The notes below the pieces were generated by a model. That model did not search any database. It was not told where the DNA came from and saw only the letters and a program-made list of their open reading frames with translations. The position numbers and the translations under genes are program-made. Shown piece by piece: positions 29,396 to 62,445 of a DNA stretch of 64,000 nt. Origin of the DNA: Leisingera sp. SS27 (GTDB lineage: Bacteria; Pseudomonadota; Alphaproteobacteria; Rhodobacterales; Rhodobacteraceae); contig NZ_JAQNCY010000002.1 of NCBI RefSeq assembly GCF_028368855.1, forward strand, positions 1 through 64,000, in the 5' to 3' direction. Position 1 is the stretch's first letter, and each line of letters opens with the position of its first letter.

Positions 29396-29608
29396 ACTAT
29401 CACATACCCTGTTCCGCTTTCCAATGTTCATTAAATTTTGCCATCACTCCGCAGCGTCATGCGCGGCAATCCGCCGCTGCCGGACGCCGGCGGATTGCCG
29501 CCGCTTTGCCGGTTCCATCCCGCATTTTTCCCGTGCTAGGCTTGCTTTGGAACGCCTGAGCCTTTGCCTGGATCAGGCGGCAATATTACGCCCGCTGCCG
29601 GAGCAGAC

Positions 29609-36227: not shown

Positions 36228-37174
36228 GCGCGGCTGCCATCGCCGCTGTGGTCATCGGCCGCAACGAGGGAGAACGGCTGATCCGCTGCCTGCGCTCCCT
36301 GCAAGGCCAGGTGCAGCAGCTGGTCTATGTCGACAGCGGCTCCACGGACGGGTCGGCAGCGGCGGCGCGGGAATTGGGCGCCTTGGTGGTGGATCTGGAT
36401 CTCAGCCAGCCGTTCACTGCCGCCCGCGCCCGAAACGCCGGGCTGGCGGAGCTGGAGCCCGGGATCGAATTTGTGCAATTCGTGGATGGCGATTGCGAGG
36501 TGAACCCGGACTGGATCGCCACCGCCGCCGATTTCATGCAGGCACACCCGAAGGCGGCAGTTGCCTGCGGGCGGCGGCGGGAGCGGTTTCCTGAGGTGTC
36601 CGTTTACAACCGTCTGTGCGATGCGGAATGGGACACGCCCGCTGGCGAGGCCAAGGCCTGCGGCGGCGACGCGCTGATGCGGGTGGCGGCGGTCTATACC
36701 GCGGGCGGCTACCGCGAGGGGCTGATCGCGGGTGAGGAGCCGGAATTGTGCCTGCGCCTGCGCCGGGCGGGCTGGCAGGTCTGGCGGCTGGAGGCTGAGA
36801 TGACCCTGCATGACGCGCAGATGCTGCGCTTCACCCAATGGTGGAACCGCAGCCGCCGCGCAGGCCACGCCTTTGCCGAAGGCGCCGCCTTGCACGGCAC
36901 CGGGCCGGAGCGGCACTGGGTGGCCGAGACCCGCCGCGCGCTCCTGTGGGGCGCTGCCCTGCCCGCCGGTATTGCCTCGGCAGCACTGGCACATCCCTTA
37001 CTGCTGATGATTGCGCTGATCTACCCGGCGCAGGTTTTGCGCCTGTCCCGCCGCACGGGGTTTGAACAGGCGCTGTTCACGGTGCTCGGAAAGTTCGCCG
37101 AAGCCGCAGGCGCGCTGGAATTTTACTGGCGCCGCTGGCGTGGCTCTGCGCGCGGGATACTGGAATACAAGTAA
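36224..37174 (+). CDS. Glycosyltransferase family 2 with C-terminal membrane helices
   Basis: The 316-residue GT2 protein has the classic N-terminal nucleotide-sugar site (AAVVIGRNEGERLIRCLRSL, YVDSGSTDGSAAAAREL), the DxD-type motif QFVDGDCEVNPDW and the distal EEPELCLRLRRAGWQVWRL (acid/base and acceptor region). A hydrophobic region near 245-285 (LWGAALPAGIASAALAHPLL, LLMIALIYPAQVLRL) anchors it in the membrane. Translation is coupled to the preceding gene through an ATGA overlap. A role in building the repeat unit on undecaprenyl phosphate is likely. Confidence 0.88.
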   Translation: MSAAAIAAVVIGRNEGERLIRCLRSLQGQVQQLVYVDSGSTDGSAAAARELGALVVDLDLSQPFTAARARNAGLAELEPGIEFVQFVDGDCEVNPDWIATAADFMQAHPKAAVACGRRRERFPEVSVYNRLCDAEWDTPAGEAKACGGDALMRVAAVYTAGGYREGLIAGEEPELCLRLRRAGWQVWRLEAEMTLHDAQMLRFTQWWNRSRRAGHAFAEGAALHGTGPERHWVAETRRALLWGAALPAGIASAALAHPLLLMIALIYPAQVLRLSRRTGFEQALFTVLGKFAEAAGALEFYWRRWRGSARGILEYK

Positions 37175-39999: not shown

Positions 40000-42900
40000 A
40001 TGCAGGATGGGACATCCGCAGCGGGGGGCGCTGCAAAACAGACAAGGCCCGGTGACATTGCCATTGTCGGGCTGTCGGTAACAGTGCCGGGCGCTGGGTC
40101 TGCCGAAGCGTTCTGGCAGAACCTGCGCGCAGGCATTGAATCGATTGAGGTGCTGGACCGCGAAACGCTGCTGGAAAACGGCGAGCGTGCATCGGTCATG
40201 GCCGACCCGAACTATGTGCCCGCCTCGGCCCGGCTGCAGGAATTTGACGAGTTTGACGCCGAATTCTTCGGCTTCAGCCCCAAGGAAGCCGCGATCCTGG
40301 ACCCGCAGCACCGCAAGTTCCTGGAGGTGGCCTGGGGGGCGATGGAAAACGCAGGCCATCCGCCCGAAAGCATCAATGGCCCCATCGGTGTTTACGCGGG
40401 CTGCGGCATGGGCAGCTATTTCTACTTCAATATCTGCTCCAACCCGGGCCTGGTCGATGACGTGGGCATGTTCCTGCTGCGCCACACCGGCAACGACAAG
40501 GATTTCCTGTCGACCCGCGTGAGCCATGTCTTTGACCTGCATGGCCCTTCGGTCAACGTGCAGACCGCCTGCTCCACATCGCTGGTGGCGGTGCATTACG
40601 CCTGTAAAGCCCTGCGCGAAGGCGAGTGCGATATGGCGCTGGCGGGAGGTGTTACCATCGAACTGCCGCAGGGCCGCGGCTATCTTTACAAGGAAAACGA
40701 GATCCTTAGTCCGGATGGCCACTGCCACGCGTTCGACCACCGGGCGCAAGGCACGGTCTTCGGCTCCGGTGCCGGCGCTGTGGCGCTCCGGCGGCTGGAG
40801 GATGCGATTGCCGATGGCGACCACATCTGGGCGGTCATCAAGGGTTCGGCCATCAACAACGACGGCGCGGACAAGGCCGGCTATCTGGCCCCCTCGGTGG
40901 GCGGCCAGTCGGCAGCGGTGCAAATGGCGCTGGACGCAGCCGGCACCCCGGCGGAGACCATCGACTATGTGGAATGCCACGGCACCGGCACCTATCTGGG
41001 CGACCCGATTGAGGTTTCGGCCCTGACCGACGCCTACCGCGCCACCACCAGTGACACGGGCTATTGCCGCATCGGCTCCGTCAAGACCAACATCGGCCAT
41101 CTGGACACCGCGGCGGGCGTTGCCAGCCTCACCAAGACCGCGCTGGCGCTGCATCACAAGGAAATTCCGCCTTCGCTGGGGTACGAGGCGCCGAACCCGG
41201 CGATTGATTTTGAGACCTCGCCGTTCCGCGTGAACGCCGCCCTCACCCCGTGGACACCGCACAAGGGGCCGCGGCGCGCCGGCATCAACTCGCTGGGGGT
41301 GGGCGGCACCAATGCACATGTGATCCTGGAGGAAGCCCCGGAACGCGCAGCCTCGGAAGAAAGCGACTTTCCATTCCAGATCCTTTGTGTTTCCGGACAG
41401 TCCAAGGCGGCGCTGGACGCCAACACTCAAGGATTGGCGGACTATTTGAAATCCAATCCCGCGGCCGATCTGGCCGATGTGGCCTATACCCTCAAGGAGG
41501 GCCGCCGCGGCTTTGCCAAGCGGCGGGTTCTGGTGGCGGAAACCGCTGCCGAAGCCATTGAGCTGATTGAGGAAAACGATCCCCGCAAGGTCTTCACCCA
41601 TGACCGGCTGGGCAACGCGCCCGAGGTGGTGTTCATGTTCCCCGGCGGCGGTGCGCAATATGCGGGCATGGCGCGGGATCTATACGAGACCGAACCGGTC
41701 TTTGCCGAGTGGATGGACCGCGGGCTGGACCATCTGCAGCAGAGCCTCGACTACGATATCCGCGCCATCTGGCTGCCTGAAGAAGGCGAGGAGGATGCGG
41801 CCAACGCCAAGCTGCAGCAGCCCTCGGTGCAGCTGCCGCTGATCATGATCGTCGAATACGCGCTGGCGCAGCTGTGGATCAGCTGGGGCGTGAAGCCCGC
41901 CGCGCTGGTCGGCCACTCAATGGGCGAGAACACCGCCGCCTGCCTGGCCGGCGTAATGTCCTTTGAGGACTGCATTGATCTAGTCCTCTTGCGCGGGCGG
42001 CTGTTTGACACCGTGCCCGCAGGCGGCATGCTGTCGATTGCCCTGCCCCTGGCCGAGGTTGAGGCCATCATCGGCTATGATCTGGATATCGCCAGCGTGA
42101 ATGCGCCCTCGCTCACCGCCGTCTCCGGCCCGCAGGAGGCGCTGGACAGGCTGTCGGCAGAGCTGACCGTCCGCGAGGCCGAACACCAGCGCATCCCCAT
42201 CGACATCGCCGCCCACTCGCGGATGCTGGACGGCATCCTGCAGGACTATGGCGATTTCATCCGCAATCTGACCCTGTCGGCGCCCGGCCTGCCGGTTATT
42301 TCGAACCGCATCGGGACCGCCCTGACCGCTGAACAGGCCACCAGCGCGGACTACTGGACCGGCCAGCTGCGCAACACCGTGCGCTATGCCGACTGCATCG
42401 AGACCCTTGCCAAGACCCCGGACCGGGTGTTCCTGGAGGTCGGCCCCGGCAAGGCCCTCAGCGCCTTGGCGCAGATGTCGCCTGCGGTGAAGCAGGGACA
42501 GGTGCTCAGCTCCTTGCGCCACCCCGATCAGGACGTGATGGACGACAGCTATTTCTTTGGCGTCATCGGCCGGCTCTGGGCCTGCGGGGTGGAGGCCGAC
42601 TGGCCGCAGATCTGGGGCGAGGCGCGCCGCAACCGCCTGCCTTTGCCGGGCTATGCCTTCCAGCGCAGCCGCTATTTCATCGAGCCCGGCAAACCAGCCG
42701 CTGAGAGCGAGGGCGACGCCCCGTCCCGTCACGATGATCCGGGCAAATGGGGCTACCGCCCGGCCTGGCGTCCGCGGCTGGCCGATTGCGCGCTGGATGC
42801 GGGGCAAGAGCTGGCGCAGGAACCGCACAACTGGCTCATTTTCGAGGATGAGGCGGGCCACGCCGCCCGCATTGCCGAAAGGCTGGAGGCTGCAAACCAC

Positions 42901-45900
42901 AGCGTTGTCCGTGTCCGCGCAGGCGACACCTATGCGCAGCTTTCACCCGCCTCCTATATCCTGCCGCCGGAGCAGGGCCGCGCCGCCTATGGCGCGCTGC
43001 TGGCGGATCTGGCAGAGGCCGGGCGACTGCCGGACCGCATCGCGCATTTCTGGCTGGTGACCGAGAGCGAAAGCTTCCGCCCCGGTTCCTCCTTCTTTGA
43101 CCGCAACCTTGAGATGGGATTCCATTCCCTGACCGCCCTGGCGCAGGAACTGGGCAATGCAGATCTGCCCGGCCCGGCGCATCTGACGGTCTTTACCACC
43201 GGTGCCGCGCAGGTCCGGGATGAGGCGCTGCCCTATCCGGAAAAGGCCATGATCGCAGGGCCGCTGGGGGTGATCCCGCGGGAACTGCCGGGATTGACCT
43301 GCTCGGCGGTGGACATTGAACTGCCGCAGGCTCCGCAGGGCCTCTTTGCCCGCCGCAACCCGGCGGCGCAGACGGATATTACCCGCCGCCTTCTCGAAGA
43401 AGTGATGGCGGAACCGGCAAACCTCTCCGCCGCCTGGCGCGGCGACAAGCGATTTGAACTCAGCTGGCGCCCGCAGCCGCTGCCCGAGCCGGAAACCCCG
43501 CCCTTCAAACAGGGCGGCCACTACCTGATCACCGGCGGCTATGGCGGCATCGGCCTGACCATTGCGGCCCACCTGATGCGCGGCTACGGCGCCAGGGTCT
43601 CGCTGATCTCCCGCGACGGTCTGCCGGCGCGCGAGACCTGGGAGCGGTATCTGGCCAGCCACAGCCCAGTGAACCGCACCGCCCAGCGCATCCGTGCCGT
43701 CATGGCGCTGGAGGCGGACGGCAAGGGTGCTGTGCTGCCGCTCTCTGCCGACGTTTGCAACAGTGGCGACCTGCGCGCGGCACGGGAGCAGGCCGAGGCG
43801 GCCTTTGGCCCTGTCACCGGGGTGATCCATGGGGCCGGTGTCATCAATGATGGCCCGCTGCTGGCCAAGGACGACGACCAGATCGCCCGGGTCCTGGCCC
43901 CCAAGGTCAGCGGACTGCGGGCGCTCGATACCGTGTTCCCGGACGGCAGCCTGGAACTGATGGTGCTGTTCTCCTCCTCTTCCACCGCGACCCGGCCCGC
44001 GGGTCAGGTGGATTACATCGCCGCCAATGAGTACCTCAACGCCTGGGCCAAGCACCGCGCGGGCGGTCAGACGCGGGTGATTGCCGTGGATTGGGGCGTC
44101 TGGGCGGATACCGGCATGGCCGCTGACGCCATGGCGGGCCGCAACGCCAACGCAGGCGCCAGCACACCGGAACCCTGCCCGCAGCCGCTGCTGCAGCAGC
44201 AGGCGTTTGATGCCGCGGGCAACCGCATCTTCACCCCCAGTTTCAGCACGGCCGACTGGCTGCTGGATGAGCACCGCACCAGGTATGGCACCGCACTGGT
44301 GCCCGGCACCGGCTATGTCGAAATGGCCGCCGAGGCGCTGTCTGCCATAGGCGTGGAAGATCCCTTCGAGATCCGGGACCTCTACTTCCTGCGCCCGCTG
44401 ATTGCGGAAGAAGGCCGCACGCGCGAGGCACTGGTAAAGTTAGAAGCTAATGAAAATGGTTATGAACTGTTTGTTTACTCGGGATTTACAAATGGTTACC
44501 GTTTGAATTGTCAGGCAATGCTGGCCTTAACGGCGGCGGCAGAACGCCCCGCCCCCCTCCCCCTCCAGACGATTTTCACCCGATGCCCGGAGGAGCAGGC
44601 GCCTGCGCGCGGGCGCCTGCGTTCCCCGCAGGAGGCGCATCTGAATTTCGGCCCGCGCTGGCATGTGCTGGACCGCGCAGCCCTGGGCGACGGCGAAGGG
44701 ATTGCCGCCCTGTCGCTGCCGGATGCGGCGGCTGGCGACGGCTGCCTGCTGCACCCCGGCCTGCTGGATCTGGCCACCGGCTGGGCGATGCAGCTGATCC
44801 CCGGGTATGACGCCACGACGCTGTGGGTGCCGGTCTCCTACGGCACCATCCGGGTCTATGCGCCGCTGACCCCGCAAGTCTTCAGCCACATGCGCCTCGC
44901 CAGCAGTGATGCCAATGGCTCAGCCGCTTTCGACGTGACCCTGACCGGCCCTGATGGCGCCGTGCTGGTGGAAATCGAGGGTTTCCGGATGCAGCGTCTG
45001 GCAGGCGGTTTCGATGCGGCAGCAGAACAAGGCGAGGCAGATGCAACAGCCGCCCAGCTGGGGCTGGAACCCGCCAGCAGCCCGCAGCCGCTGTCGCCCG
45101 AGGAGCGCCGCTTGCAGCTGAACATCTCAAACGGCATCAAGGCAGAGGAAGGCGGCGAGGCTCTGGCCCGCGCCCTGGCCGCTGGCTTGCCGCAGGTGGT
45201 GGTTTCCTCGCTGGACTTGCCAGCCCTGATCGCCCAAGCGGAGCAAAGCACACCGGCTGAGGCGGAGGCCCAGACATTTGACCGGCCGCAGCTCGACACC
45301 GACTATGTCGCTCCGCGCAACCCGGTGGAAGAGCAGCTGGCAAAGCTGTTTGCCTCGCTCCTGGGGGTCAGCCAGGTCGGTATAGAAGACAGTTTTTTTG
45401 ACCTCGGCGGTCACTCCCTGATTGCGGTGCGGCTGTTTGCGCAGGTGAAACGCGCCTTTGATGTGGAATTCCCGCTGTCGGTTCTGTTCGAGGCGCCCAG
45501 CGTTGCCGCGCTGGCGGAACGGATCATTGAACGCACCGGCGGCGGAGTTGCTGAGGAGCCGGGCGGCGGCACGCAGGCTGCCGAAGAGAAGCCGCAGTTC
45601 ACCCATCTGGTGCAGCTGCACCCCGGCGACGGCACCGGGCGGCGGCCTTTCTTCCTGGTTGCAGGCATGTTCGGCAACGTGCTGAACCTGCGGCATCTGG
45701 CGCTGCTGGTGGGCAAGGACCGCCCGGTCTATGGCCTGCAAGCCAAGGGGCTGGTGGGCAGCGATGCGCCGCATGACAGGATTGAGGATGCCGCCCGCAG
45801 CTGCCTGGAAGAAATCCGCCGGATCCAGCCCGACGGCCCCTATCTGCTGGGCGGCTTCTCCGGCGGCGGCATTACCGCCTATGAGATGGCGCAGCAGTTG

Positions 45901-46455
45901 AAGCAGCAGGGCCAGGACACCGCGGCGCTGATCCTGCTGGATACGCCGCTGCCTGTGCGCCCCGCCCTGTCGCGTCAGGACAAGGCATTGATCAAGCTGG
46001 AAGAACTGCGCAGAAAGGGACTGGGCTACCTGAGCGAATGGGCCAGGAACCGGATCGCCTGGGAGTTTGAAAAACGCCGCGCCAGACCGGCAGAAACCGG
46101 CGCCTTGCCCGAGTTCAACAACCGCAAGATCGAATTGGCCTTCCGCGCCGCGGTGGAGACGTATGATCTCAAACCCTGGCACGGCCCGTTGACGCTGTTC
46201 CGCCCGCCCTTGGACCGCAAATGGAAGGTCAGCGGCGGCCATTGGGTCAGCAGCGAACGCGAGTATGTGTTCGCCGACAACGACTGGACCCGCTGGGCGC
46301 CCGCCGTCGAGGTGGACGAAGTGCCGGGCGACCATGACAGCATGGTGCTGGTGCCGAACGTCAGCGTGCTGGCCGCCGGCGTCAAAACGCGGCTCGATGC
46401 CGCAGACCGGGCAGCAGCCTCCAGCCCGTCCCGCTCCATCCGGGCGGCGGAGTAA
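40000..46455 (+). CDS. Type I polyketide synthase, KS-AT-KR-DH-ACP-TE
   Basis: A 2151-residue single-module PKS. KS about 18-440 with active Cys191 (QTACSTSL), His327 (ECHGTGTYLGDP) and His367 (KTNIGHLD); AT about 540-850 with Ser640 (GHSMGENTA) and AAHSRML, which leaves malonyl versus other extender open; KR about 1165-1390 with GGYGGIGLTIA and Tyr1339 (DYIAANEYLNAWA); DH about 1405-1680 with His1425; ACP with Ser1806 (DLGGHSLIAV); TE with Ser1954 (GGFSGGG) and His2112 (PGDHDSM). KR precedes DH, opposite to the usual order, and both DH motifs are altered. No ER or methyltransferase. ATG at 40000 follows AGG; TTG at 39994 is an alternative. A glycosyltransferase gene follows after 5 bases. 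Confidence 0.92.
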   Translation: MQDGTSAAGGAAKQTRPGDIAIVGLSVTVPGAGSAEAFWQNLRAGIESIEVLDRETLLENGERASVMADPNYVPASARLQEFDEFDAEFFGFSPKEAAILDPQHRKFLEVAWGAMENAGHPPESINGPIGVYAGCGMGSYFYFNICSNPGLVDDVGMFLLRHTGNDKDFLSTRVSHVFDLHGPSVNVQTACSTSLVAVHYACKALREGECDMALAGGVTIELPQGRGYLYKENEILSPDGHCHAFDHRAQGTVFGSGAGAVALRRLEDAIADGDHIWAVIKGSAINNDGADKAGYLAPSVGGQSAAVQMALDAAGTPAETIDYVECHGTGTYLGDPIEVSALTDAYRATTSDTGYCRIGSVKTNIGHLDTAAGVASLTKTALALHHKEIPPSLGYEAPNPAIDFETSPFRVNAALTPWTPHKGPRRAGINSLGVGGTNAHVILEEAPERAASEESDFPFQILCVSGQSKAALDANTQGLADYLKSNPAADLADVAYTLKEGRRGFAKRRVLVAETAAEAIELIEENDPRKVFTHDRLGNAPEVVFMFPGGGAQYAGMARDLYETEPVFAEWMDRGLDHLQQSLDYDIRAIWLPEEGEEDAANAKLQQPSVQLPLIMIVEYALAQLWISWGVKPAALVGHSMGENTAACLAGVMSFEDCIDLVLLRGRLFDTVPAGGMLSIALPLAEVEAIIGYDLDIASVNAPSLTAVSGPQEALDRLSAELTVREAEHQRIPIDIAAHSRMLDGILQDYGDFIRNLTLSAPGLPVISNRIGTALTAEQATSADYWTGQLRNTVRYADCIETLAKTPDRVFLEVGPGKALSALAQMSPAVKQGQVLSSLRHPDQDVMDDSYFFGVIGRLWACGVEADWPQIWGEARRNRLPLPGYAFQRSRYFIEPGKPAAESEGDAPSRHDDPGKWGYRPAWRPRLADCALDAGQELAQEPHNWLIFEDEAGHAARIAERLEAANHSVVRVRAGDTYAQLSPASYILPPEQGRAAYGALLADLAEAGRLPDRIAHFWLVTESESFRPGSSFFDRNLEMGFHSLTALAQELGNADLPGPAHLTVFTTGAAQVRDEALPYPEKAMIAGPLGVIPRELPGLTCSAVDIELPQAPQGLFARRNPAAQTDITRRLLEEVMAEPANLSAAWRGDKRFELSWRPQPLPEPETPPFKQGGHYLITGGYGGIGLTIAAHLMRGYGARVSLISRDGLPARETWERYLASHSPVNRTAQRIRAVMALEADGKGAVLPLSADVCNSGDLRAAREQAEAAFGPVTGVIHGAGVINDGPLLAKDDDQIARVLAPKVSGLRALDTVFPDGSLELMVLFSSSSTATRPAGQVDYIAANEYLNAWAKHRAGGQTRVIAVDWGVWADTGMAADAMAGRNANAGASTPEPCPQPLLQQQAFDAAGNRIFTPSFSTADWLLDEHRTRYGTALVPGTGYVEMAAEALSAIGVEDPFEIRDLYFLRPLIAEEGRTREALVKLEANENGYELFVYSGFTNGYRLNCQAMLALTAAAERPAPLPLQTIFTRCPEEQAPARGRLRSPQEAHLNFGPRWHVLDRAALGDGEGIAALSLPDAAAGDGCLLHPGLLDLATGWAMQLIPGYDATTLWVPVSYGTIRVYAPLTPQVFSHMRLASSDANGSAAFDVTLTGPDGAVLVEIEGFRMQRLAGGFDAAAEQGEADATAAQLGLEPASSPQPLSPEERRLQLNISNGIKAEEGGEALARALAAGLPQVVVSSLDLPALIAQAEQSTPAEAEAQTFDRPQLDTDYVAPRNPVEEQLAKLFASLLGVSQVGIEDSFFDLGGHSLIAVRLFAQVKRAFDVEFPLSVLFEAPSVAALAERIIERTGGGVAEEPGGGTQAAEEKPQFTHLVQLHPGDGTGRRPFFLVAGMFGNVLNLRHLALLVGKDRPVYGLQAKGLVGSDAPHDRIEDAARSCLEEIRRIQPDGPYLLGGFSGGGITAYEMAQQLKQQGQDTAALILLDTPLPVRPALSRQDKALIKLEELRRKGLGYLSEWARNRIAWEFEKRRARPAETGALPEFNNRKIELAFRAAVETYDLKPWHGPLTLFRPPLDRKWKVSGGHWVSSEREYVFADNDWTRWAPAVEVDEVPGDHDSMVLVPNVSVLAAGVKTRLDAADRAAASSPSRSIRAAE

Positions 46456-46460
46456 CCATC

Positions 46461-47477
46461 ATGGCCCAACAGCGCATCCTCATCATTCTTCTGAATTTCC
46501 GCACCCCGGAGATGACAGTGCAGGCCGCTGAAACGGCGCTGTGCGAGCTGGAAGACCTGCCGGGAGAGCTGCTGATCATCGACAATGGCTCCGGCGACGG
46601 CTCCTTTGACCAGATCCGGGCGGCTGCCCGGGCACGCGGCTGGCTGGACAGCAACCGGGTGCGGGTGATCGCCTCGCCGGTGAACGGCGGCTTTGGCGCA
46701 GGCATGAACATCGGCCTCGGCACCGGCCTCGCGGACGGCAGCGCGCCGGAGTTCTACTATCTCCTGAACTCCGACGCATTTGTGCAGGGGGACACCATCC
46801 GCACCCTTCGCGATTTCCTGCTGGAGCGTCCAGGCGCGGGCCTTGCAGGGTCTTATGTGCGCGGCACGGACGGGGCGCCGCACCGCACCGCCTTCCGCTT
46901 TCCCTCCATCGCGGGCGAATTCGAGGCCAGCGTGCGGACCGGCATCTTCACCCGGCTGCTGAAACCCTGGGTCGTCGCCATGGAGATGCCGCAGGCAGAG
47001 GTGCAGGTCGACTGGACTGCCGGCGCCAGCCTGATGATCCGCCGCGAGGCGATTGAGGCCGCTGGCGGTTTTGACGAGACCTTCTTCCTTTACTTTGAAG
47101 AGACTGACCTCTGCCGCCGGGCCGCACGGGCGGGCTGGCGCACCCACTATGTGCCCGCCAGCGAAGTGGCGCATATCGGCTCCGCCTCGACCGGCATGAA
47201 GGGCTGGCAGCGCACGCCGCGCTACTGGTTCGACTCGCGCCTGCACTACTTCGTCAAGAACCACGGCCGCGCCTATGCCGCCGCCGCCACGCTGGCCCGC
47301 ATCTCCGGCAGCCTGATCTATGGCCTGCGCCGCCTGATCCAGAACAAGCCGCAGGCCGATCCGCCGCATTTCCTGCGCGATCTCTGCCTGCACAGCCTGC
47401 GCGCGCCGTTTGCGCCGCGCCACCACCCCACTTCGGAAACGCGCCTCCCTTCTCCGCTTGCAAAGGAGCAGAAATGA
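46461..47477 (+). CDS. Glycosyltransferase family 2 (rhamnosyltransferase-like) inside the PKS-NRPS operon
   Basis: The 338-residue protein starts MAQQRILIILLNFRTPEMTV and shows GT2 features: LLIIDNGSGDGSFDQI, the substrate-loop VNGGFGAGMNIGL, the DxD-type YYLLNSDAFVQGD and FDETFFLYFEETDLCRRAA, as in rhamnosyltransferase-type enzymes. It is soluble or loosely membrane-bound. It starts 6 bases after the PKS stop and its own stop overlaps the NRPS start (ATGA), so it is made together with both megaenzymes. It may glycosylate the PKS-NRPS product or link it to a glycan; the sugar is unknown. Confidence 0.88.
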   Translation: MAQQRILIILLNFRTPEMTVQAAETALCELEDLPGELLIIDNGSGDGSFDQIRAAARARGWLDSNRVRVIASPVNGGFGAGMNIGLGTGLADGSAPEFYYLLNSDAFVQGDTIRTLRDFLLERPGAGLAGSYVRGTDGAPHRTAFRFPSIAGEFEASVRTGIFTRLLKPWVVAMEMPQAEVQVDWTAGASLMIRREAIEAAGGFDETFFLYFEETDLCRRAARAGWRTHYVPASEVAHIGSASTGMKGWQRTPRYWFDSRLHYFVKNHGRAYAAAATLARISGSLIYGLRRLIQNKPQADPPHFLRDLCLHSLRAPFAPRHHPTSETRLPSPLAKEQK

Positions 47478-50400: not shown

Positions 50401-52039
50401 GGCCGGCCATGATCCTGCGGATTTCAAGGTCACGTTGATGCTGCACAGCTATCTGGCGGAAACCCGCGAGGAAGCCCGCCGCGTCGCGCGGGAGCCGATG
50501 AAGGACTACCTGCGGTCTGCCGCCGGGCTGATCAAGCAATACGCCTGGGCCTTCCCCGCCTTCAAGAAACCCGAAGGCGTGAAGAACCCCTTCGAGATGG
50601 ACCTGGGAATGCTGTCGGAGGAGGAACTGGAAGCCATCCTCGATTTCGCCTTTGAGCGCTATTTCGAGGACTCCGGGTTGTTCGGCACCATCCAGGATGC
50701 CTGCCAGCGGGTGGAGCAGCTGAAGCGCATCGGCGTCGATGAGATCGCCTGCCTGATCGACTACGGCATCGCGCCGGACGTGGTGCTGGAGGGGCTGAAG
50801 CCGCTGGCTGAGGTGCTGCGCCTGTCGAACGCGCCGCAGGAGCTGGCGGCGGATGATTTCTCGCTGGCGGCACAGATCGTGCGCCATGGCGTCAGCCACA
50901 TGCAATGCACGCCATCAATGGCGCGGATGATTGCCGCAGACGGGGATGCCAGCGCCTGTCTGGGCCAGCTGCAGCATCTGCTGGTGGGCGGCGAGGCGCT
51001 GCCGGGTGATCTGGTGCAGGCGCTGCGCGCGGCCACACGCGCGGACATCCACAACATGTACGGGCCGACCGAGACGACGATCTGGTCGACGGTGGAGAAA
51101 ATCAGCACCGTCCCTGCGGGGACAGCCGGGATTGGAACGCCGGTTGCCAATACACAGGTTTACGTGCTGGACGGGAAGCAATCGCCTGTGCCCGCAGGGG
51201 CTCCAGGTGAATTGTATATCGGCGGCGCGGGAGTCACCGCCGGCTACTGGCAGCGGCCGGAATTGACGGCTGAACGCTTCGTAAAGGCACCGTTCGCTGC
51301 AACGCCCCTCTACCGCACCGGCGATCTGGTGCGCTGGAGCGAAACGGGCAGTCTCATCTTTCTGGGCCGCACCGATCATCAGGTGAAGATCCGCGGCCAG
51401 CGGATTGAGCTGGGGGAGATCGAGGCCGCGCTGACGGCGCAGCCCGGTGTGACCGGCGCCGTGGCGGTCCCGCGCGGCGACGCCGGCGCAGAACAGCTGG
51501 TTGCCTATGTCACCGTTTCTGCACCTGTATCCGGAGACGCCCTGAAACAGGCGCTGGCAACCCGGCTGGCTGAGGTCATGGTGCCTGCGCATATCGTCAC
51601 CCTGGACGCTTTCCCGCTGACCCCGAACAAGAAAATCGACCGCAAGGCGCTGCCGGATCCGCAGCCCGCGCAGGCCAAGGCCGCCCCGGCAGTGGCACTG
51701 GACGCAGGCGCGCAAGCCCGGATTGCCACGGTCTGGAGCCGCATTCTGGGGGTCAGCGGCATCGGCGCGCAGGACAACTTCTTTGCCCTTGGCGGCCATT
51801 CCCTGCTGGCGGTGCAGGCGCACCGGGAACTGCGCGCGGAACTGGGCACCAGCGCCCTGTCGATCACCGACATTTTCCGCTTTCCGACCCTGGCCGGACT
51901 GGCCGCGCACATCGAAGGGCTTGCAGGGACCCCGGCAAATACGGAACAACAGCCTGAGGCAGCCGCAGCCCCGGACCGCAGCGACATGATGTCGAAACGG
52001 CGGGCGATGCGGGCAAACCGCAGGACAAGGACCGGATGA
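47474..52039 (+). CDS. NRPS: formyltransferase - partial C - A interrupted by luciferase-like monooxygenase - PCP
   Basis: The 1521-residue protein has an N-terminal formyltransferase (about 1-290) with Asn87, His89 (NFHDGPLPHYAGLN) and Asp125 (GGVDEGDIL); a region about 310-515 like the C-terminal lobe of a condensation domain without HHxxxDG; an adenylation domain from about 532 (YTSGSTGLPKGV, A5 NMYGPTETTIWST, A10 NKKIDRKAL); within it, between A4 and A5, a luciferase-like FMN monooxygenase (about 760-1105, starting MDFNLFYWGNDDGPGP) of the MupA/Atu3671 type; and a PCP with Ser at about 1442 (ALGGHSLLAVQ). The code read by eye is D-I-L-Q-L-G-M-I-W-K, near the glycine code. There is no TE. 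An N-terminal formyltransferase suggests an initiation module. Confidence 0.92.
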   Translation: MTAFTCALIGNESLLIGCAEALLARGHQIRAVVSQDAGIRAWAADKGLDILNTPAELNGGFDWLLSIANLTVIPDAVLAQAAKGAVNFHDGPLPHYAGLNTPNWALINGEAQHGITWHLIEGGVDEGDILAQRLFDVAEDETAFSLNSKCYAAAMDSFGEVVSQLETGELNRQPQDLSQRRLFRKSDRPEAGGMLDVSRPAAELARLVQALDTGGYWNPLCAAKLRLGGNVVLAGAADAAEGSGAPGTVLEVSKSTVKVATGSGALTLSRLTTPAGQVLDVTKLTAPGDQVPSLTAAETGALTARLAAVQGGESHWRQRLAAMQPVQMPLASGRCSSEYSRRDIALPVGLSEEQAAAAVLAFALLSSGAETGDIALSAVGAEGLPGLISAWVPLQAQRQDSVAALADRTAQNIDKTRKFGGFAEDLVARAPEISAQAQPAIGLMLGDDAAVAGCAVTVSLNAGALALHCDAAALTPDAADLLAARLDLVLNAIAEDSSRTVAELPILPESERKMLLEDWNQTAADVPAGLTIHAAFEAQAAKTPDATALVFEDQSFTYAEVNMRAKAVAGRLREMNVKPGVHVGLHIRRAPELVFAALGVMKAGGAYVPLDPAYPADRIAHYITDSQAQVIVTQGALAASLPPSDAQVLKIEDVPAGTEGENTDGGATGSDLAYLIYTSGSTGLPKGVMVTHDNAANFFTGMDQRIPHQPGDAWLAVTSLSFDISVLELFWTLSRGLKLVLSSDESRLELSKGPVALSDRKMDFNLFYWGNDDGPGPQKYHLLLEGAKFVDRHGFNAVWTPERHFHAFGGPYPNPSVTGAAVAAVTQNIGVRSGSCVAPLHHPARIAEEWAVIDNLTAGGAGIGFASGWQPDDFILRPENTPPANKPALFETIETVRKLWRGEEVAFPRKDGGEHSVLTQPRPVSKELPVWVTTAGNPETWREAGSIGANVLTHLLGQSIDEVAGKIRIYHDALRAAGHDPADFKVTLMLHSYLAETREEARRVAREPMKDYLRSAAGLIKQYAWAFPAFKKPEGVKNPFEMDLGMLSEEELEAILDFAFERYFEDSGLFGTIQDACQRVEQLKRIGVDEIACLIDYGIAPDVVLEGLKPLAEVLRLSNAPQELAADDFSLAAQIVRHGVSHMQCTPSMARMIAADGDASACLGQLQHLLVGGEALPGDLVQALRAATRADIHNMYGPTETTIWSTVEKISTVPAGTAGIGTPVANTQVYVLDGKQSPVPAGAPGELYIGGAGVTAGYWQRPELTAERFVKAPFAATPLYRTGDLVRWSETGSLIFLGRTDHQVKIRGQRIELGEIEAALTAQPGVTGAVAVPRGDAGAEQLVAYVTVSAPVSGDALKQALATRLAEVMVPAHIVTLDAFPLTPNKKIDRKALPDPQPAQAKAAPAVALDAGAQARIATVWSRILGVSGIGAQDNFFALGGHSLLAVQAHRELRAELGTSALSITDIFRFPTLAGLAAHIEGLAGTPANTEQQPEAAAAPDRSDMMSKRRAMRANRRTRTG

Positions 52040-52725
52040 CGGACAGCAACAGCAGACTGGCAGAGCGGCTGGCCCTGGTCCGGCCGCTTTTTGCCGCCGA
52101 TGTGGCTCTGGCCGGGGCGGATCCGCTGGGTAGGCCTCCGGCGCCGCTGGCAGAGGAGGCCGCCGGTCTGTCGCCCAATGCTGTTGCGAAACGGCGCAAC
52201 GAGTTTGCCGCAGGCCGTGACGCCGTGCATCTGGCGATGCGGCAGCTGGGCGTGCCCCCCGTCCCGGTGCAGGTCGGCAGCGACCGGGCGCCGGTCTGGC
52301 CTGAGGGGCTGGTGGGCTCCATCACCCATACCAAGAGCTGCGCCATGGCGGTGCTGGCGCATTCCGGAGTGGTGCAAGGGCTGGGCATCGACGTCGAGGA
52401 AGACACCCCGCTGAAGAATGAGCTGCTGCCCGCAATCTGCTCTGACCGGGAGCAGGCCTGGCTGAAACGGCAGGACAATCCTGGCCAGATGGCCAAGGTG
52501 ATCTTTTCCGCCAAGGAGGCGGCCTATAAGGCGCAGTACGGCTTGAGCCGGGCGTTTTACGGCTTTGACGGGATGGAGCTGGAGTTTGATCTGGCCGCAA
52601 GCGCCTATCAGGCGTTTTTCACCGCCGACCGGACGCCTTTCAAGCGCGGCGAGGCGGTGGGCGGGCGCTTTGCCATTGGTGCGGGCCTCATCATGACCAC
52701 TGCGGAAATCCGGGGGCGCGGATGA
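52036..52725 (+). CDS. 4'-phosphopantetheinyl transferase (Sfp type)
   Basis: The 229-residue protein activates carrier domains by moving phosphopantetheine from CoA to the conserved serine. It has the Sfp/EntD motifs: SITHTKSCAMAVLA, LGIDVEED (Asp119, Glu121) and FSAKEAAYKAQYG (Glu161, Lys165). It has no signal peptide. The gene overlaps the NRPS stop (ATGA) and is overlapped by the next gene, so it is the dedicated partner of the ACP at Ser1806 of the PKS and the PCP of the NRPS. Confidence 0.93.
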   Translation: MTDSNSRLAERLALVRPLFAADVALAGADPLGRPPAPLAEEAAGLSPNAVAKRRNEFAAGRDAVHLAMRQLGVPPVPVQVGSDRAPVWPEGLVGSITHTKSCAMAVLAHSGVVQGLGIDVEEDTPLKNELLPAICSDREQAWLKRQDNPGQMAKVIFSAKEAAYKAQYGLSRAFYGFDGMELEFDLAASAYQAFFTADRTPFKRGEAVGGRFAIGAGLIMTTAEIRGRG

Positions 52726-53660
52726 TGGGGCGGCGCGGGCTTCTGGCCGCGGGCGCAGCCGCCGCCACGCTGGGGCTGATGGTGTTTGCCACCCGCAGCC
52801 GGTCCGTGCCGGTGCCGCCGCCGCTGGCCCCGCCTGAAGGGCCGCTGAAGGTGTTTCACCTCGGCCATTCGCTGGTCGGGCCGGACATGCCGCACATGCT
52901 GATGCAGCTGGCGCCTGAAGGGCACGCCTATAACAGCCAGCTGGGATCGGGCACTTCGCTGCGGGCGCATTGGGAGCCGGACGAGGCGATCCTTGATTTT
53001 GAGACCGCCAATCAAGCGCCTGCCTACCGTGATGCGAAGGAGGCAATCGGGTCCGGCGGTTACGGCGCGGTGGTGCTGACCGAAATGGTAGAACTGCGTG
53101 ATGCGCTCAAGTATTTCGATTCGGCCAAGCACCTGGGGAAATGGGCGGATCTGGCGCGGCAGGCCTCGCCGCAGACGCGCCTGTATCTCTATGAAACCTG
53201 GCACCGGCTGGATGATCCGGATGGCTGGCTGCAGCGGATTGACGGGGACCTGGACGCTCTGTGGACACGTCAGCTGCTGGGCACGGACAGCCGCCGCAAC
53301 CCGCAGAAGCCGGTGTATCTGATCCCCGGCGGGCAGGTTCTGGCAGCGGTTGCGCGTTCAGCGGAGGCCGGGGAAATCCCCGGGCTGGTGTCACGTGAAG
53401 CGTTGTTTGCCCGCACGCCTGAAGGGGAACTGGACAGGATCCACATCAACGATCTGGGCGCCTATGTCGTGGCCCTGACCCACTATGCGGTGCTGTATCA
53501 GCGCCCCCCCATAGGCCTGCCGCATCAGCTGAGCCGCGCGGATGGCAGCCCTGCTGAGGCCTTCAGCGCCGCGGCCGCAGCCAGGGTGCAGCAGATCGTC
53601 TGGGAGACCGTGCGCGCCCTGCCCCGCACCGGCATTGCCGCCGCCGGAGCGCCGGCATGA
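52722..53660 (+). CDS. SGNH/GDSL-like hydrolase with N-terminal export signal
   Basis: The 312-residue protein has a hydrophobic signal with a twin arginine (MGRRGLLAAGAAAATLGLMV), then an SGNH-like catalytic domain: FHLGHSLVGPDM (Ser50 in GHSL) and a distal DRIHINDLGAYV with the Asp-x-x-His pair. Such enzymes act as esterases or, in AlgX/AlgJ-like cases, transfer acyl groups to polysaccharide. The export signal and the position in a polysaccharide/PKS operon fit modification of a surface glycan. It is related to the N-terminal half of the next protein (shared ETWH, LPHxLS, GHSL). Confidence 0.8.
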   Translation: MMGRRGLLAAGAAAATLGLMVFATRSRSVPVPPPLAPPEGPLKVFHLGHSLVGPDMPHMLMQLAPEGHAYNSQLGSGTSLRAHWEPDEAILDFETANQAPAYRDAKEAIGSGGYGAVVLTEMVELRDALKYFDSAKHLGKWADLARQASPQTRLYLYETWHRLDDPDGWLQRIDGDLDALWTRQLLGTDSRRNPQKPVYLIPGGQVLAAVARSAEAGEIPGLVSREALFARTPEGELDRIHINDLGAYVVALTHYAVLYQRPPIGLPHQLSRADGSPAEAFSAAAAARVQQIVWETVRALPRTGIAAAGAPA

Positions 53661-56167
53661 AGCTGGAGGCGCTGATCACATCCGTTGTGATGATCGGCCA
53701 TTCGCTGTTCGGGCCGGACAACCCGCAGATGCTGGAGCAGCTGCTGGACACCCAGGCAGAAGCCCGGGTCGAAGCACAGATCATTAACGGCGCGCCTCTC
53801 AGCTACAATTGGCAGCACAGCAGCAGCGCCGAAGGTGTTGATTCACGCGAAAGACTGCGCGCACCTGCCGATGCGGTGATCGTGACGGAGGCGATCCCGC
53901 TGGCCAATCATCTGGAATGGAGCGGCACGGAGCAGGCGGTCGCGCAGTTTTATGAACTCGCGCGCGCTGCCAACCCGGATGTGCACTTCTATCTGCAGGA
54001 AACCTGGCACAGCCTGGACAGCGGCTCCGGCACCGATGTGCCGTTTGACAAAGGGGCCGGAGTGCCCTGGCGGATGCGGCTGGAGCAGGACCTGCCGCGC
54101 TGGCAGGCGGTGGTGGCAGAGGTGAACACGGCCACTGGCGGCACCGTGAAACTGCTGCCAGCAGGCCAGGCCATGGCGCGGCTGGATGATGAGATCCAGG
54201 CAGGCACCATGCCGGGGCTTTCCAGTATCCGCGATGTCTTTGCCGATGATATCCACCCCAATGCAACCGGCTTCTACTTTCTGGCGCTGCTGCAATATGC
54301 GGTGCTGACGGGCAAGGACCCCGCCGGGCTGCCGCACCGGCTGTCGGACCGCTGGGGCACGCCCTATCCTGCGCCGCCCCGTGAATTGGCCGCCCGCCTG
54401 CAAGCCGTTGCCTGGGAGGCCGCGCAGGGAGGCCGCGCGCGCGCTTCGGCCTTGCCTGCGGACCCGCCGCCGCTGCCGCAGGATCCGCCCGTGCCTGTGC
54501 TGAACGCTTCTGTACTGGAGGCCGCTCCCGCTGCCGCACCGCCTCCAGCCGCAGCTCGCCAGCCCATTGCCATCAACCTTGCGGGCATTGCCGACTGGAG
54601 CACCCAGGCGCCGTTTCTTGATCATTTTAAAACCGCCCGCCCCTGGATCGGCCATGTACCCGGGCAATGGGGTGGTGTGGATCATGCCACCCTGATGGAC
54701 GCCGGTTATCTGGACCCGGCTGGCTGGCCCACCGCGATCCCGCCGGAGCTGAGCTCAATCGGCACGGTGATACTGACCGACCTACCGGAGACAGCCGTTT
54801 CACTCGCGGGCCGCTACGTCCTGCGCTTCGAAGGTGAGGGCATCGTTGAGGTTCTGGGCAGGGCAGAAAACGTCCGCTATGGCAAAGGCGAGGTGCGTTT
54901 TGACTACACCCCCGGCCCCGGCCCGGTGGAGATCCGCATCCAGCGGATGGGCCGCGGCGGCCGGTACGTGCGCAACATCACCGTGGTGCGGGAAGAGCAT
55001 CTGGAAGCGTTTGACAGCGGCGCGCTGTTCAATCCGCTGTGGCTGGAGCGGCTGGAAGGTTTTGCCGCGCTGCGGTTCATGGACTGGATGGCCACCAATG
55101 ACTCTGAGCAGACCGGCTGGGAAGGCCGGCCGCTGACGTCGGACTACACTTGGGCGCTGAAGGGGGTTCCGGCGGAAGTGATGCTGGCATTGGCCAATAA
55201 GCTGGATGCCGATCCCTGGTTCAACATGCCCCATATGGCAGATGACACATATGTGCGGCGCTTCGCGCAGCTGGCGGAGCGCGGATTGGATTCAGGCCTG
55301 CGCGCCTATGTGGAATACTCCAACGAGGTCTGGAACTGGCAGTTTCAGCAGGCCGCCTGGGCCGATGGCCAGGCCCGGGCGCGCTGGGAGGGCGAGGGAT
55401 TGTGGATGCAGTTCTACGGCGGCCGCGCAGCGGAAGTGGCACAGATCTGGACCGGTGTGTTCGGCGAAGACGGCACACGGCTGGTAAGGGTGATTTCGTC
55501 TCAAACCGGCTGGCTGGGGCTGGAAGAACAAGTGCTGACGGCACCCCTGTGGACGGCTGAACAGACCGGGCGGCTGGAACCTGCTGCCTATTTTGATGCC
55601 TATGCAGTCACGGGGTATTTCGGCGGCGTGCTGGGCCTGGAAGACCGCTCTGGCGTGGTGCGCGCCTGGATCGATGACAGCCGCGCGCAGGCACTGGCAC
55701 TGGCAGCAGAGCGCGGGCTGACAGGCACTGCAGCAGCTCAGTTTGCAAGACGGCATCAATACGACGCCGCCAGCGTCCGGGCCGGGGCGGAGTTGCGTGG
55801 CGGACAGGTCTCCGGCAATCCCGCCGACACGCTGGCGGATCTGCTTGGCCGCGTGCTGCCCTATCACGCGGGTGCCGCGCAAACACACGGGCTGGATCTG
55901 ATCATGTATGAGGGCGGCAGCCATGTGGTGGGTATCGGCCCGATGGTGGAAGACGCGGAGCTGACAGGCTTTTTTACCCATTTCAACTACACGGATGAGA
56001 TGGGCGGGCTGTACCGCGAGCTGCTGGCCGGCTGGCAGGCGCTTGGCGGCAGCCTGTTCACCGCCTATGCCGACGTCGGCGCACCCGGAAAATGGGGCAG
56101 CTGGGGGGCATTGCGCACCCTGAGCGATCAGAACCCGCGCTGGGACGCACTGGAGGCGGTGAAATGA
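53657..56167 (+). CDS. Fusion of SGNH-like hydrolase and glycoside-hydrolase-like domain
   Basis: The 836-residue protein has an N-terminal SGNH-like domain (about 8-255; MIGHSLFGPDNPQML with Ser16, and DDIHPNATGFY with Asp197/His200), a Pro/Ala linker (about 260-305), and a C-terminal part like clan A glycoside hydrolases: a beta-sandwich (about 310-450), then a barrel with RFMDWMATNDSE, YVEYSNEVWNWQF (Glu557, likely acid/base) and MYEGGSHVVG (Glu752, likely nucleophile). No clear signal peptide is visible. It would both deacylate (or acylate) and cut or remodel a polysaccharide. ATGA overlaps tie it to both neighbours. Confidence 0.8.
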   Translation: MKLEALITSVVMIGHSLFGPDNPQMLEQLLDTQAEARVEAQIINGAPLSYNWQHSSSAEGVDSRERLRAPADAVIVTEAIPLANHLEWSGTEQAVAQFYELARAANPDVHFYLQETWHSLDSGSGTDVPFDKGAGVPWRMRLEQDLPRWQAVVAEVNTATGGTVKLLPAGQAMARLDDEIQAGTMPGLSSIRDVFADDIHPNATGFYFLALLQYAVLTGKDPAGLPHRLSDRWGTPYPAPPRELAARLQAVAWEAAQGGRARASALPADPPPLPQDPPVPVLNASVLEAAPAAAPPPAAARQPIAINLAGIADWSTQAPFLDHFKTARPWIGHVPGQWGGVDHATLMDAGYLDPAGWPTAIPPELSSIGTVILTDLPETAVSLAGRYVLRFEGEGIVEVLGRAENVRYGKGEVRFDYTPGPGPVEIRIQRMGRGGRYVRNITVVREEHLEAFDSGALFNPLWLERLEGFAALRFMDWMATNDSEQTGWEGRPLTSDYTWALKGVPAEVMLALANKLDADPWFNMPHMADDTYVRRFAQLAERGLDSGLRAYVEYSNEVWNWQFQQAAWADGQARARWEGEGLWMQFYGGRAAEVAQIWTGVFGEDGTRLVRVISSQTGWLGLEEQVLTAPLWTAEQTGRLEPAAYFDAYAVTGYFGGVLGLEDRSGVVRAWIDDSRAQALALAAERGLTGTAAAQFARRHQYDAASVRAGAELRGGQVSGNPADTLADLLGRVLPYHAGAAQTHGLDLIMYEGGSHVVGIGPMVEDAELTGFFTHFNYTDEMGGLYRELLAGWQALGGSLFTAYADVGAPGKWGSWGALRTLSDQNPRWDALEAVK

Positions 56168-57000
56168 CCCCGCGGCTCTCCGTTCTGATCCCGGCCCATA
56201 ACGAGGCGGACTATATCAGAAGCTGCCTGCAGGCAGTCTTTGCGTCAGATCCGCTGCCCGCGGGCATGACGGCAGAGGTGCTGGTGCTGGCCAATGGCTG
56301 CACCGATGCCACCGCCGCGCACGCCCGCAGGACTGCCGTTCCGATAAGCTGGGAGCTGCAGGTTCTGGAGCTGCCGGAGGGCGGCAAGCTCGGCGCGCTG
56401 AATGCCGGTGACGCCGCTGCGCGCGGAGATATCCTGATCTATCTGGATGCCGATGTGCAGATCTCCCCGGAGCTGATCACGCAGATCGCAGCGGCCTTGG
56501 ATAGCGGCGCACCGGGCTATGCCAGCGGCCGCCCGCGGGTTTCCCCGGCCCGCAGCCTGGTGACCCGCGCCTATGCGCGGTTCTGGATGCGGCTGCCGTT
56601 CTTCTCAAGCGGCGTGCCGGGGTTCGGTATTTTTGCCATGAACCGTGCCGGGCGCCAGCGCTGGGGCGGCTGGCCGGATATCATCGCCGACGACATCTTT
56701 GCGCGGTTGAACTTCACTCCGCAGGAGCGCGTGCAGGTGGCGGCATCCTACAGCTGGCCGATGGTGGAGGGGTTCCGCAATCTGGTGAAAGTGCGGCGGC
56801 GGCAGAATGCCGGAGTGGCGGAAGTGGCAAAAATCTACCCGCATTTGATGCTGAACGAGGACACCCCCCGCGTTGGTGCAAGCAGGGTTCTTCGCCTGCT
56901 GCTGCGCGACCCGGCCGGGTTCCTGGCCTATGCCGCGGTTGCGCTGGCGGTGAAAACGCCGCTGTTTGCCTCCCGCACCCGCTGGACCCGCGGCCGCTGA
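56164..57000 (+). CDS. Glycosyltransferase family 2, last gene of the PKS-NRPS operon
   Basis: The 278-residue protein is a compact GT2 enzyme: LSVLIPAHNEADYIRSCLQA, LVLANGCTDATAAHAR, the DxD motif ILIYLDADVQISPELI, and the acceptor region WPDIIADDIFARLNF (D-D catalytic base). A hydrophobic C-terminal stretch (FLAYAAVALAVKTPLF) may sit at the membrane. The start is an ATG overlapping the preceding stop by 4 bases. It is convergent with the next glycosyltransferase; the hairpin repeat at 57071-57153 probably ends transcription. Confidence 0.87.
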   Translation: MTPRLSVLIPAHNEADYIRSCLQAVFASDPLPAGMTAEVLVLANGCTDATAAHARRTAVPISWELQVLELPEGGKLGALNAGDAAARGDILIYLDADVQISPELITQIAAALDSGAPGYASGRPRVSPARSLVTRAYARFWMRLPFFSSGVPGFGIFAMNRAGRQRWGGWPDIIADDIFARLNFTPQERVQVAASYSWPMVEGFRNLVKVRRRQNAGVAEVAKIYPHLMLNEDTPRVGASRVLRLLLRDPAGFLAYAAVALAVKTPLFASRTRWTRGR

Positions 57001-62371: not shown

Positions 62372-62445
62372 AACCGTGCTCCCTGCAATGGCCGGACAGT
62401 CTGATGCCAGCAGGCGGGACGCCGACACAGCATACCAGAAAGGTG

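What the first reader, a model, noticed from the sequence alone, without database searches (positions are those of the whole stretch)
40000..57000. Seven-gene operon couples a PKS-NRPS assembly line to polysaccharide enzymes
Seen: PKS, glycosyltransferase, NRPS, phosphopantetheinyl transferase, SGNH hydrolase, SGNH/glycoside-hydrolase fusion and glycosyltransferase are in one direction; junctions at 47474, 52036, 52722, 53657 and 56164 are ATGA overlaps and the PKS/GT gap is 5 bases. The operon sits inside a Wzx/Wzy-type polysaccharide locus. Known: overlaps of this kind mean cotranslation and usually joint function. Inference: the small acid made by the assembly line is attached to, or made together with, a surface glycan or glycolipid; the SGNH proteins may transfer or trim the acyl group. 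I know of no described roseobacter product of this kind.
Basis: partly seen in the sequence, partly recalled or inferred. Interest (0 to 1): 0.88.

Follow-up and report, generated by a model that had tools for sequence, protein, structure and literature searches.

The report
Two-step acid factory in sugar-coat genes
Many marine bacteria of one family keep a tiny two-enzyme assembly line, predicted to build a small acid from glycine and malonate, inside the genes that build their surface sugar coat, which suggests the coat carries an undescribed chemical tag.

Summary
In detail: seven same-strand genes (40000-57000) meet at the stated ATGA overlaps and 5-base gap, inside a Wzx-type polysaccharide locus.

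The conserved unit is four genes: PKS, GT2, NRPS, PPTase. PKS-GT-NRPS is colinear in 78 of 80 named relatives; all seven in order occur in 14 of 80 and 8 of 20 further loci. Homologues of the window's polysaccharide genes flank 74 of 80 and 17 of 20 further loci, against 0 of 20 control stretches. An NRPS match at E<=1e-250 is in 53 of 150 genomes of the family.

The NRPS is formyltransferase, unassigned region, adenylation domain with inserted luciferase-like oxygenase, carrier; its code DILQLGMIWK is that of published glycine/MOX domains. The PKS is one module, KS-AT-KR-DH-ACP-TE. I infer a C4 acid from glycine plus malonate, with an oxime or N-formyl-hemiaminal end, placed on the glycan. 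Attachment is not shown. A distant clade keeps the pair without detected glycan genes in four of six groups. I found no published account of the glycan link.

The parts
40000..46455 (+). Type I PKS, one module: KS 40054-41184, AT 41629-42465, KR 43516-44109, DH 44185-45003, ACP 45331-45525, TE from 45724 (KR precedes DH). Alternative TTG start 39994.
   Evidence: Pfam domains (numbering from 39994); catalytic positions kept in 72-73 of 73 rows, the DH glycine in 68, one KR position S in 36 and T in 36
46461..47477 (+). GT2 glycosyltransferase lying between PKS and NRPS (GT_A), part of the conserved core
   Evidence: homologue between PKS and NRPS in 78 of 80 relatives
47474..52039 (+). NRPS: formyltransferase 47474-48322, unassigned ~250-aa region 48323-49078, adenylation N part 49079-49717, luciferase-like oxygenase (TIGR04020) 49763-50815, adenylation C part 50795-51652, PCP 51719-51913; code DILQLGMIWK
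   Evidence: A1; catalytic positions in 110 rows
52036..52725 (+). 4'-phosphopantetheinyl transferase (Sfp type)
   Evidence: PF17837, PF01648
52722..53660 (+). SGNH-type protein with an N-terminal helix/signal-like segment; GHS50 and D238-x-x-H241
   Evidence: A5, model pLDDT 92.5, best PDB match 4i8i DUF4886 E 1.7e-6; CE3 and CE2 esterases only at E 6e-3 to 9e-3
53657..56167 (+). Fusion of a second SGNH domain with a clan GH-A type glycoside hydrolase domain (YSNEVWN motif)
   Evidence: A4, model, PDB matches 4i8i, beta-1,4-galactanase, GH51, GH10
56164..57000 (+). GT2 glycosyltransferase (GT_B)
   Evidence: PF00535
38140..39738 (+). O-antigen ligase/Wzy-like membrane protein, upstream
   Evidence: PF04932 E 2.7e-5, below its curated cut-off; homologue in 46 of 80 relatives
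36119..37174 (+). GT2 glycosyltransferase of the polysaccharide locus
   Evidence: PF00535
57164..58372 (-). GT4 glycosyltransferase of the polysaccharide locus
   Evidence: PF13692
58431..59978 (+). Wzx-type flippase
   Evidence: PF13440 7.7e-43
60085..61326 (-). Possible chain-length (Wzz/PCP-like) protein; no Pfam hit
   Evidence: position next to the CpsD-like gene as in L009; inference
61445..62428 (-). CpsD/CapB-like kinase
   Evidence: 65% identical to a gene annotated CpsD/CapB in L009; weak CbiA hit
62446..63312 (-). Initiating sugar transferase (polyprenyl phosphate)
   Evidence: PF02397 1.8e-56

Best explanation
The PKS-GT-NRPS-PPTase core is a tailoring module of a Wzx/Wzy-type polysaccharide pathway. 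The PPTase activates the carriers. The NRPS loads glycine, N-formylates and/or oxidises it on the carrier, and hands it to the single PKS module, which adds one malonate, reduces and dehydrates. The thioesterase releases a four-carbon unsaturated acid with a masked aldehyde end (glyoxylate-type oxime or N-formyl hemiaminal), either onto a sugar of the lipid-linked repeat or as free acid for transfer. The partner GT2 probably adds the sugar that carries it. The repeat is flipped by Wzx and polymerised; where present, the periplasmic SGNH and SGNH/GH proteins trim acyl groups and chains. Shown: domain order, glycine code, conserved catalytic residues, conserved linkage. Inferred: substrate order, oxime or hemiaminal, attachment to the glycan, role of GT and SGNH.
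For: Glycine: code DILQLGMIWK in the window, DILQ[LMAFC]GMIWK in 13 of 13 aligned; identical to four published Gly/MOX domains (PMC12283262, section read). Formyltransferase N/H/D in 109, 106 and 109 of 110 rows. PKS catalytic residues kept in 72-73 of 73 rows. Linkage: 78 of 80 colinear; polysaccharide homologues in 74 of 80; of the six others, four have glycan-type genes by Pfam: a WecG-type GT in L043, a mannose-1-phosphate guanylyltransferase-type protein and acyltransferase in L058, Wzz in L089 and L092. In 20 further loci 17, in 20 control stretches 0. Different arrangements, same company: Aminobacter and Shinella, Methylobacterium-type G386 with Wzz, GT4, DegT, epimerase, Deinococcus. 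Precedent for a glycine primer with oxygenase and dehydratase assigned to an oxime: necroximes (PMC7318616 passages). Precedent for type I PKS in capsule loci: RkpA/WcbR (PMC3908369 passages).
Against: No biochemical data. The distant clade keeps NRPS and PKS without detected glycan genes in Aliiroseovarius, G437 and G749 and G130 (homology only). Within the main group, L085 shows none and has a respiratory-type oxidoreductase gene instead, and 3 of 20 further loci (L148, L155 = G130, L165) show none in 20 kb. GT_A does not sit next to the pair in Hyphomicrobiales. The 80 named loci are the best of 569 and so biased to close relatives. Synteny within one family is not independent evidence. The best solved match of the oxygenase is PuwE, and luciferase-like oxygenases in such lines are mostly reported as hydroxylases, so an oxime is not assured.
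Confidence: 0.58

Rival explanations
1. The assembly line makes a free small metabolite (signal, antibiotic or metallophore) and merely shares a locus and regulation with biofilm polysaccharide genes.
For: Roseobacter PKS/NRPS genes are discussed in print as secondary-metabolite or antibacterial potential (PMC4062626 and PMC5583230 passages). The distant clade stands alone in four of six groups. The terminal TE can release a free acid.
Against: Linkage to glycan genes recurs with different arrangements; a GT sits between the two synthases in 78 of 80; among the seven overlapping genes Pfam shows no exporter, receptor or resistance gene.
Confidence: 0.22
2. The product acylates a glycolipid or forms the lipid/reducing-end anchor of the polysaccharide, in the way discussed for RkpA/WcbR PKSs (anchor role recalled).
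For: RkpA/WcbR are type I PKSs in capsule loci (PMC3908369 passages).
Against: One module primed by glycine gives too short an acid for a membrane anchor unless it iterates; the locus is Wzx-type. Iteration is not excluded.
Confidence: 0.12
3. Chance or ancestral co-location: the block was inherited in one island and has no functional tie to the glycan.
For: Most evidence is from one family; the three tree groups (94, 7 and 9 rows) are each monophyletic, so linkage may have few origins.
Against: Close or overlapping junctions kept in most relatives; rearranged yet still linked in Hyphomicrobiales, where the PKS is divergent, and in Methylobacterium-type and Deinococcus loci.
Confidence: 0.08

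Closest known systems
Oxime-loading NRPS-PKS modules of necroxime/oximidine/lobatamide
   Same: Glycine primer, on-line oxygenase, dehydratase (model in PMC7318616 passages)
   Different: Those are long trans-AT lines making cytotoxic macrolactones, with a methyltransferase; here one cis-AT module ends in a TE, no methyltransferase, glycan context. Whether their oxygenase belongs to the same family was not checked
A(Gly)-MOX domains (myxothiazol/melithiazol MtaG/MelG type; names recalled)
   Same: Oxygenase with a glycine A domain and identical code DILQLGMIWK
   Different: There MOX cleaves the glycine backbone (text; at chain end, recalled); here the module appears to start the chain and carries a formyltransferase
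Linear gramicidin synthase LgrA initiation module (formyltransferase-A-PCP)
   Same: Formyltransferase at the N terminus of an NRPS; best solved match of the whole protein
   Different: Extra ~250-aa region between FT and A, inserted oxygenase, glycine instead of valine (valine recalled)
RkpA/WcbR capsule PKSs
   Same: Type I PKS encoded in a capsular polysaccharide locus
   Different: No NRPS partner mentioned in the passages seen
Roseobacter PKS/NRPS of Phaeobacter inhibens (Inhi_1972 / Inhi_1974)
   Same: Numbering fits PKS-gene-NRPS in a related genus; possibly the same locus, not checked by sequence
   Different: Reported only as PKS/NRPS genes in a secondary-metabolism discussion in the passages seen

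Membership tests
Hybrid NRPS-PKS assembly line | A-PCP and KS-AT-ACP modules with TE and a PPTase | tested here: met
A(Gly)-MOX domain | TIGR04020 oxygenase inserted inside an A domain | tested here: met
A(Gly)-MOX domain | Code DILQLGMIWK | tested here: met
   window identical; positions 299 and 330 vary in relatives; PMC12283262
A(Gly)-MOX domain | Cleavage of glycine | not testable with these tools
   needs assay
FT-A-PCP initiation module (LgrA type) | Formyltransferase with catalytic N/H/D (triad recalled) | tested here: met
FT-A-PCP initiation module (LgrA type) | FT followed directly by A | tested here: not met
   ~250 aa between them; one of five proteins gives a sub-threshold hit to the C-terminal half of Condensation, E 0.29
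Oxime-loading module (necroxime/lobatamide) | Glycine primer plus oxygenase plus dehydrating PKS | tested here: met
   comparison text
Oxime-loading module (necroxime/lobatamide) | trans-AT architecture with methyltransferase | tested here: not met
   cis AT present, no methyltransferase domain
RkpA/WcbR capsule PKS | PKS in a capsule/EPS locus | tested here: met
RkpA/WcbR capsule PKS | Sequence membership in the RkpA/WcbR clade | not tested
   no RkpA or WcbR sequence was fetched
Wzx/Wzy polysaccharide pathway | Flippase and polyprenyl-phosphate sugar transferase | tested here: met
   PF13440, PF02397
Wzx/Wzy polysaccharide pathway | Wzy polymerase | tested here: inconclusive
   PF04932 24.4 bits, below cut-off 31.7

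The most novel reading that the evidence does not exclude
A widespread class of bacterial surface polysaccharide carries an on-line-made oxime or N-formyl-hemiaminal C4 acyl group, that is a masked aldehyde tag built by a two-protein NRPS-PKS dedicated to glycan decoration, in about a third of the genera sampled in this family.
Probability: 0.3. Interest if true: 0.87.

Novelty: new variant of a known kind. Interest (0 to 1): 0.68.

Why it matters
Assembly-line enzymes are usually read as makers of free metabolites. If this one decorates a polysaccharide, many 'orphan' roseobacter PKS-NRPS clusters gain a function, glycan chemistry gains a glycine/malonate-derived group that I did not find in the papers searched, and surface colonisation by an abundant marine family gains a testable chemical basis. 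The masked aldehyde could also serve as a crosslinking or adhesion handle (speculation).

Tried and rejected
Rejected: the seven genes as the conserved unit (14 of 80 and 8 of 20 keep all in order). Flanks are cut in some loci, so these are lower bounds. Rejected: a canonical condensation domain in the 250-aa region (Pfam at E<=10 gives one weak Condensation hit in 1 of 5 proteins).

Led nowhere: PDB sequence search for the SGNH and SGNH/GH proteins. All ten literature searches listed no paper that by title or start of abstract describes the glycan link; several listings were partial (15 of 495, 25 of 284, 15 of 177, 25 of 41). Passages of PMC12971057, PMC4359443, PMC12016528 and PMC7347517 were seen and gave nothing on this. 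Minas et al. on oxime formation, Vinnik et al. on fabrubactin and Newton et al. on roseobacters are not held, so what I say of lobatamide beyond one search is recalled.

Selection to note: the 80 named loci are the best of 569. The 20 further loci were picked by me for having enough flank, 19 from the 53 genomes and one; none matches any of the 80 at 90% DNA identity. The 20 control stretches sit at round coordinates in 12 of the same genomes. In one search, 6 of 115 extracted NRPS frames shorter than 1300 aa were dropped; its 110 rows hold duplicates (L109/L117, L111/L119, and L114/L053), and L019 and G386 are 99.6% alike in the one ORF compared. One search measured only junctions where both genes were found in order, preferred a 4-base overlap where a start codon allowed one, and used the 72 relatives with a PKS frame over 1900 aa plus the window. 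An earlier count said the distant clade has no glycan context, made later, corrects this for G386, and L019 is taken as the same locus.
Full report
What is there. The seven genes, their strand, the 5-base PKS/GT gap and five ATGA overlaps were confirmed. The block lies in a polysaccharide locus running roughly from the GT2 at 36119 to the sugar transferase at 63312, with a Wzx-type flippase, a Wzy-like protein (sub-threshold), GT4, a CpsD-like kinase and a polyprenyl-phosphate sugar transferase. Eight ORFs scanned in the following 15 kb include an ABC transport set and no glycosyltransferase.

Anatomy of the assembly line. The PKS has KS, AT, KR, DH, ACP and TE domains. In 73 rows (72 relatives and the window) the KS C/H/H, AT S/H, KR Y/N, DH H/D and ACP S are invariant; TE S/D/H are kept in 72 of 73 each. 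One KR position varies S/T and the DH glycine is kept in 68 of 73. KR lies before DH. The NRPS has a formyltransferase, a region Pfam cannot name, an adenylation domain interrupted by a TIGR04020 luciferase-like oxygenase, and a PCP. The unnamed region gave a weak hit to the C-terminal half of a condensation domain in 1 of 5 proteins (E 0.29), so it may be a remnant; this is inconclusive. The best solved match of the whole is LgrA and of the oxygenase PuwE, 6ket.

Substrate. The ten-residue code is DILQLGMIWK; the 13 sequences of alignment A1 differ from it at most at position 299. In 110 rows, eight of the nine other positions are invariant and 330 is I in 103 and V in 7. PMC12283262 (section read) reports that four glycine-activating domains with MOX all have exactly this code. 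I therefore take glycine as the substrate with good confidence. No functional condensation domain was found, so the module should start a chain. The PKS then adds one malonate unit; KR and DH would leave a 2,3-double bond, and the TE releases the product.

Oxygenase chemistry is open. Luciferase-like oxygenases in PKS lines are mostly reported as hydroxylases (palmerolide paper, PMC8739492 passages). In the necroximes a glycine primer, an oxygenase and a dehydratase are assigned to the oxime side chain, and related clusters for oximidine and lobatamide are named (PMC7318616 passages). The domain order here resembles that, but with a formyltransferase and a TE. I recall, without a source at hand, that the lobatamide side chain is a 4-oximino-butenoyl group. 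The product here would be that acid or an N-formyl hemiaminal version.

Distribution. At E<=1e-250 the NRPS matches in 53 of 150 genomes of the family, one per genus and the window's own included; four of those matches cover only 61-92% of the query. At E<=1e-200 it is in 9 of 387 genomes of the class and 16 of 299 of the phylum sample, own genome included; the latter has two partial matches without the formyltransferase. A tree of 110 rows splits into a window-containing group (94), a Hyphomicrobiales-type group (7) and a distant group (9), each monophyletic under midpoint rooting, support 0.99 or more.

Neighbourhood. In the 80 named loci PKS-GT-NRPS is colinear in 78, a PPTase homologue is present in 71, and at least one homologue of six polysaccharide genes of the window is in the held flank of 74. 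The six exceptions are L024 (only 9.9 kb held) and L043, L058, L085, L089, L092. By Pfam, L043 has a WecG-type GT, L058 a mannose-1-phosphate guanylyltransferase-type protein, an acyltransferase and a kinase-type ATPase, and L089 and L092 each a Wzz; L085 has a respiratory-type oxidoreductase gene, and no glycan gene was traced to it. In 20 further loci the count is 17 of 20 (L148, L155 and L165 show none); in 20 control stretches of 12 of the same genomes it is 0 of 20. Hyphomicrobiales loci have the PKS divergent from NRPS-PPTase and again flippase, GT and, in most, sugar transferase neighbours.

Against. The distant group (42-46% identity) is mixed. Methylobacterium bullatum (L019) and the near-identical G386 have Wzz, GT4, DegT aminotransferase and epimerase nearby (Pfam run on the G386 stretch), and Deinococcus has annotated polysaccharide genes. 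Aliiroseovarius, G437 and G749 and G130 (homology only) show no glycan gene among what was tested. That is four of six groups, which may not be independent: Aliiroseovarius and G749 both have a PKS-bearing protein of about 3080 aa, and these two and G437 share an alpha/beta hydrolase near it. The pooled Pfam list shows 25 of 74 families, and one UDP-glucose/GDP-mannose dehydrogenase in it was not traced to a locus. The pair can thus exist without a glycan locus, and the glycan tie may be a later capture or a lost one.

The extra genes. SGNH, SGNH/GH (or GH alone) and the second GT follow the core in order in 14 of 80 and 8 of 20 loci. SGNH1 folds with pLDDT 92.5 and matches a DUF4886 protein, 4i8i (E 1.7e-6); it is the only match below 0.001, and CE3 and CE2 esterases come at 6e-3 to 9e-3 among unrelated folds. 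S50, D238 and H241 are invariant in 24 rows. The second protein is SGNH plus a GH-A-type barrel; in several relatives the GH part stands alone. They read best as periplasmic trimming or acyl-handling enzymes, not as part of the assembly line; this is inference.

Known versus new. PKS genes in capsule loci are known (RkpA/WcbR, PMC3908369 passages). A PKS and an NRPS numbered Inhi_1972 and Inhi_1974 in Phaeobacter inhibens are reported as confirming earlier work on secondary-metabolite potential (PMC4062626 passages). The ten literature searches listed no paper that describes the glycan link or a product by title or start of abstract; subscription journals are mostly absent from the library. 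I rate it a new variant of a known kind: a minimal hybrid line apparently recruited to glycan decoration, with a sharp and testable product prediction.

Noticed in passing
L043 (Hydrogenophaga pseudoflava NBRC 102511 contig): A Rhodobacteraceae-like PKS-GT-NRPS locus (57% identity) in a record named as a betaproteobacterium; transfer or contamination.
   Followed up: no
L119, L124, L015 near the PKS: An alpha/beta hydrolase (44-47% identical to the L119 copy) accompanies the distant NRPS-PKS pair where no glycan genes were found.
   Followed up: partly
L019 25893-26744 and L116 10552-11403: A 284-aa ORF next to the distant-type PKS in Methylobacterium-type genomes looks like an FkbM-type methyltransferase by eye; no family search was run.
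   Followed up: no
L010, L015, L021: XrtD exosortase (VPLPA-CTERM sorting) genes lie near several of these loci.
   Followed up: no
L011 19662-19895: In Ruegeria sp. SCSIO 43209 only a 234-bp ORF is annotated after the NRPS where the PPTase is expected, with a transposase fragment just downstream.
   Followed up: no
window 29564-35037: TamA/TamB-like pair upstream of the polysaccharide locus.
   Followed up: no
L072, L083 (SGNH1 N termini): Lipobox-like LSAC suggests SGNH1 is a lipoprotein in some relatives.
   Followed up: no
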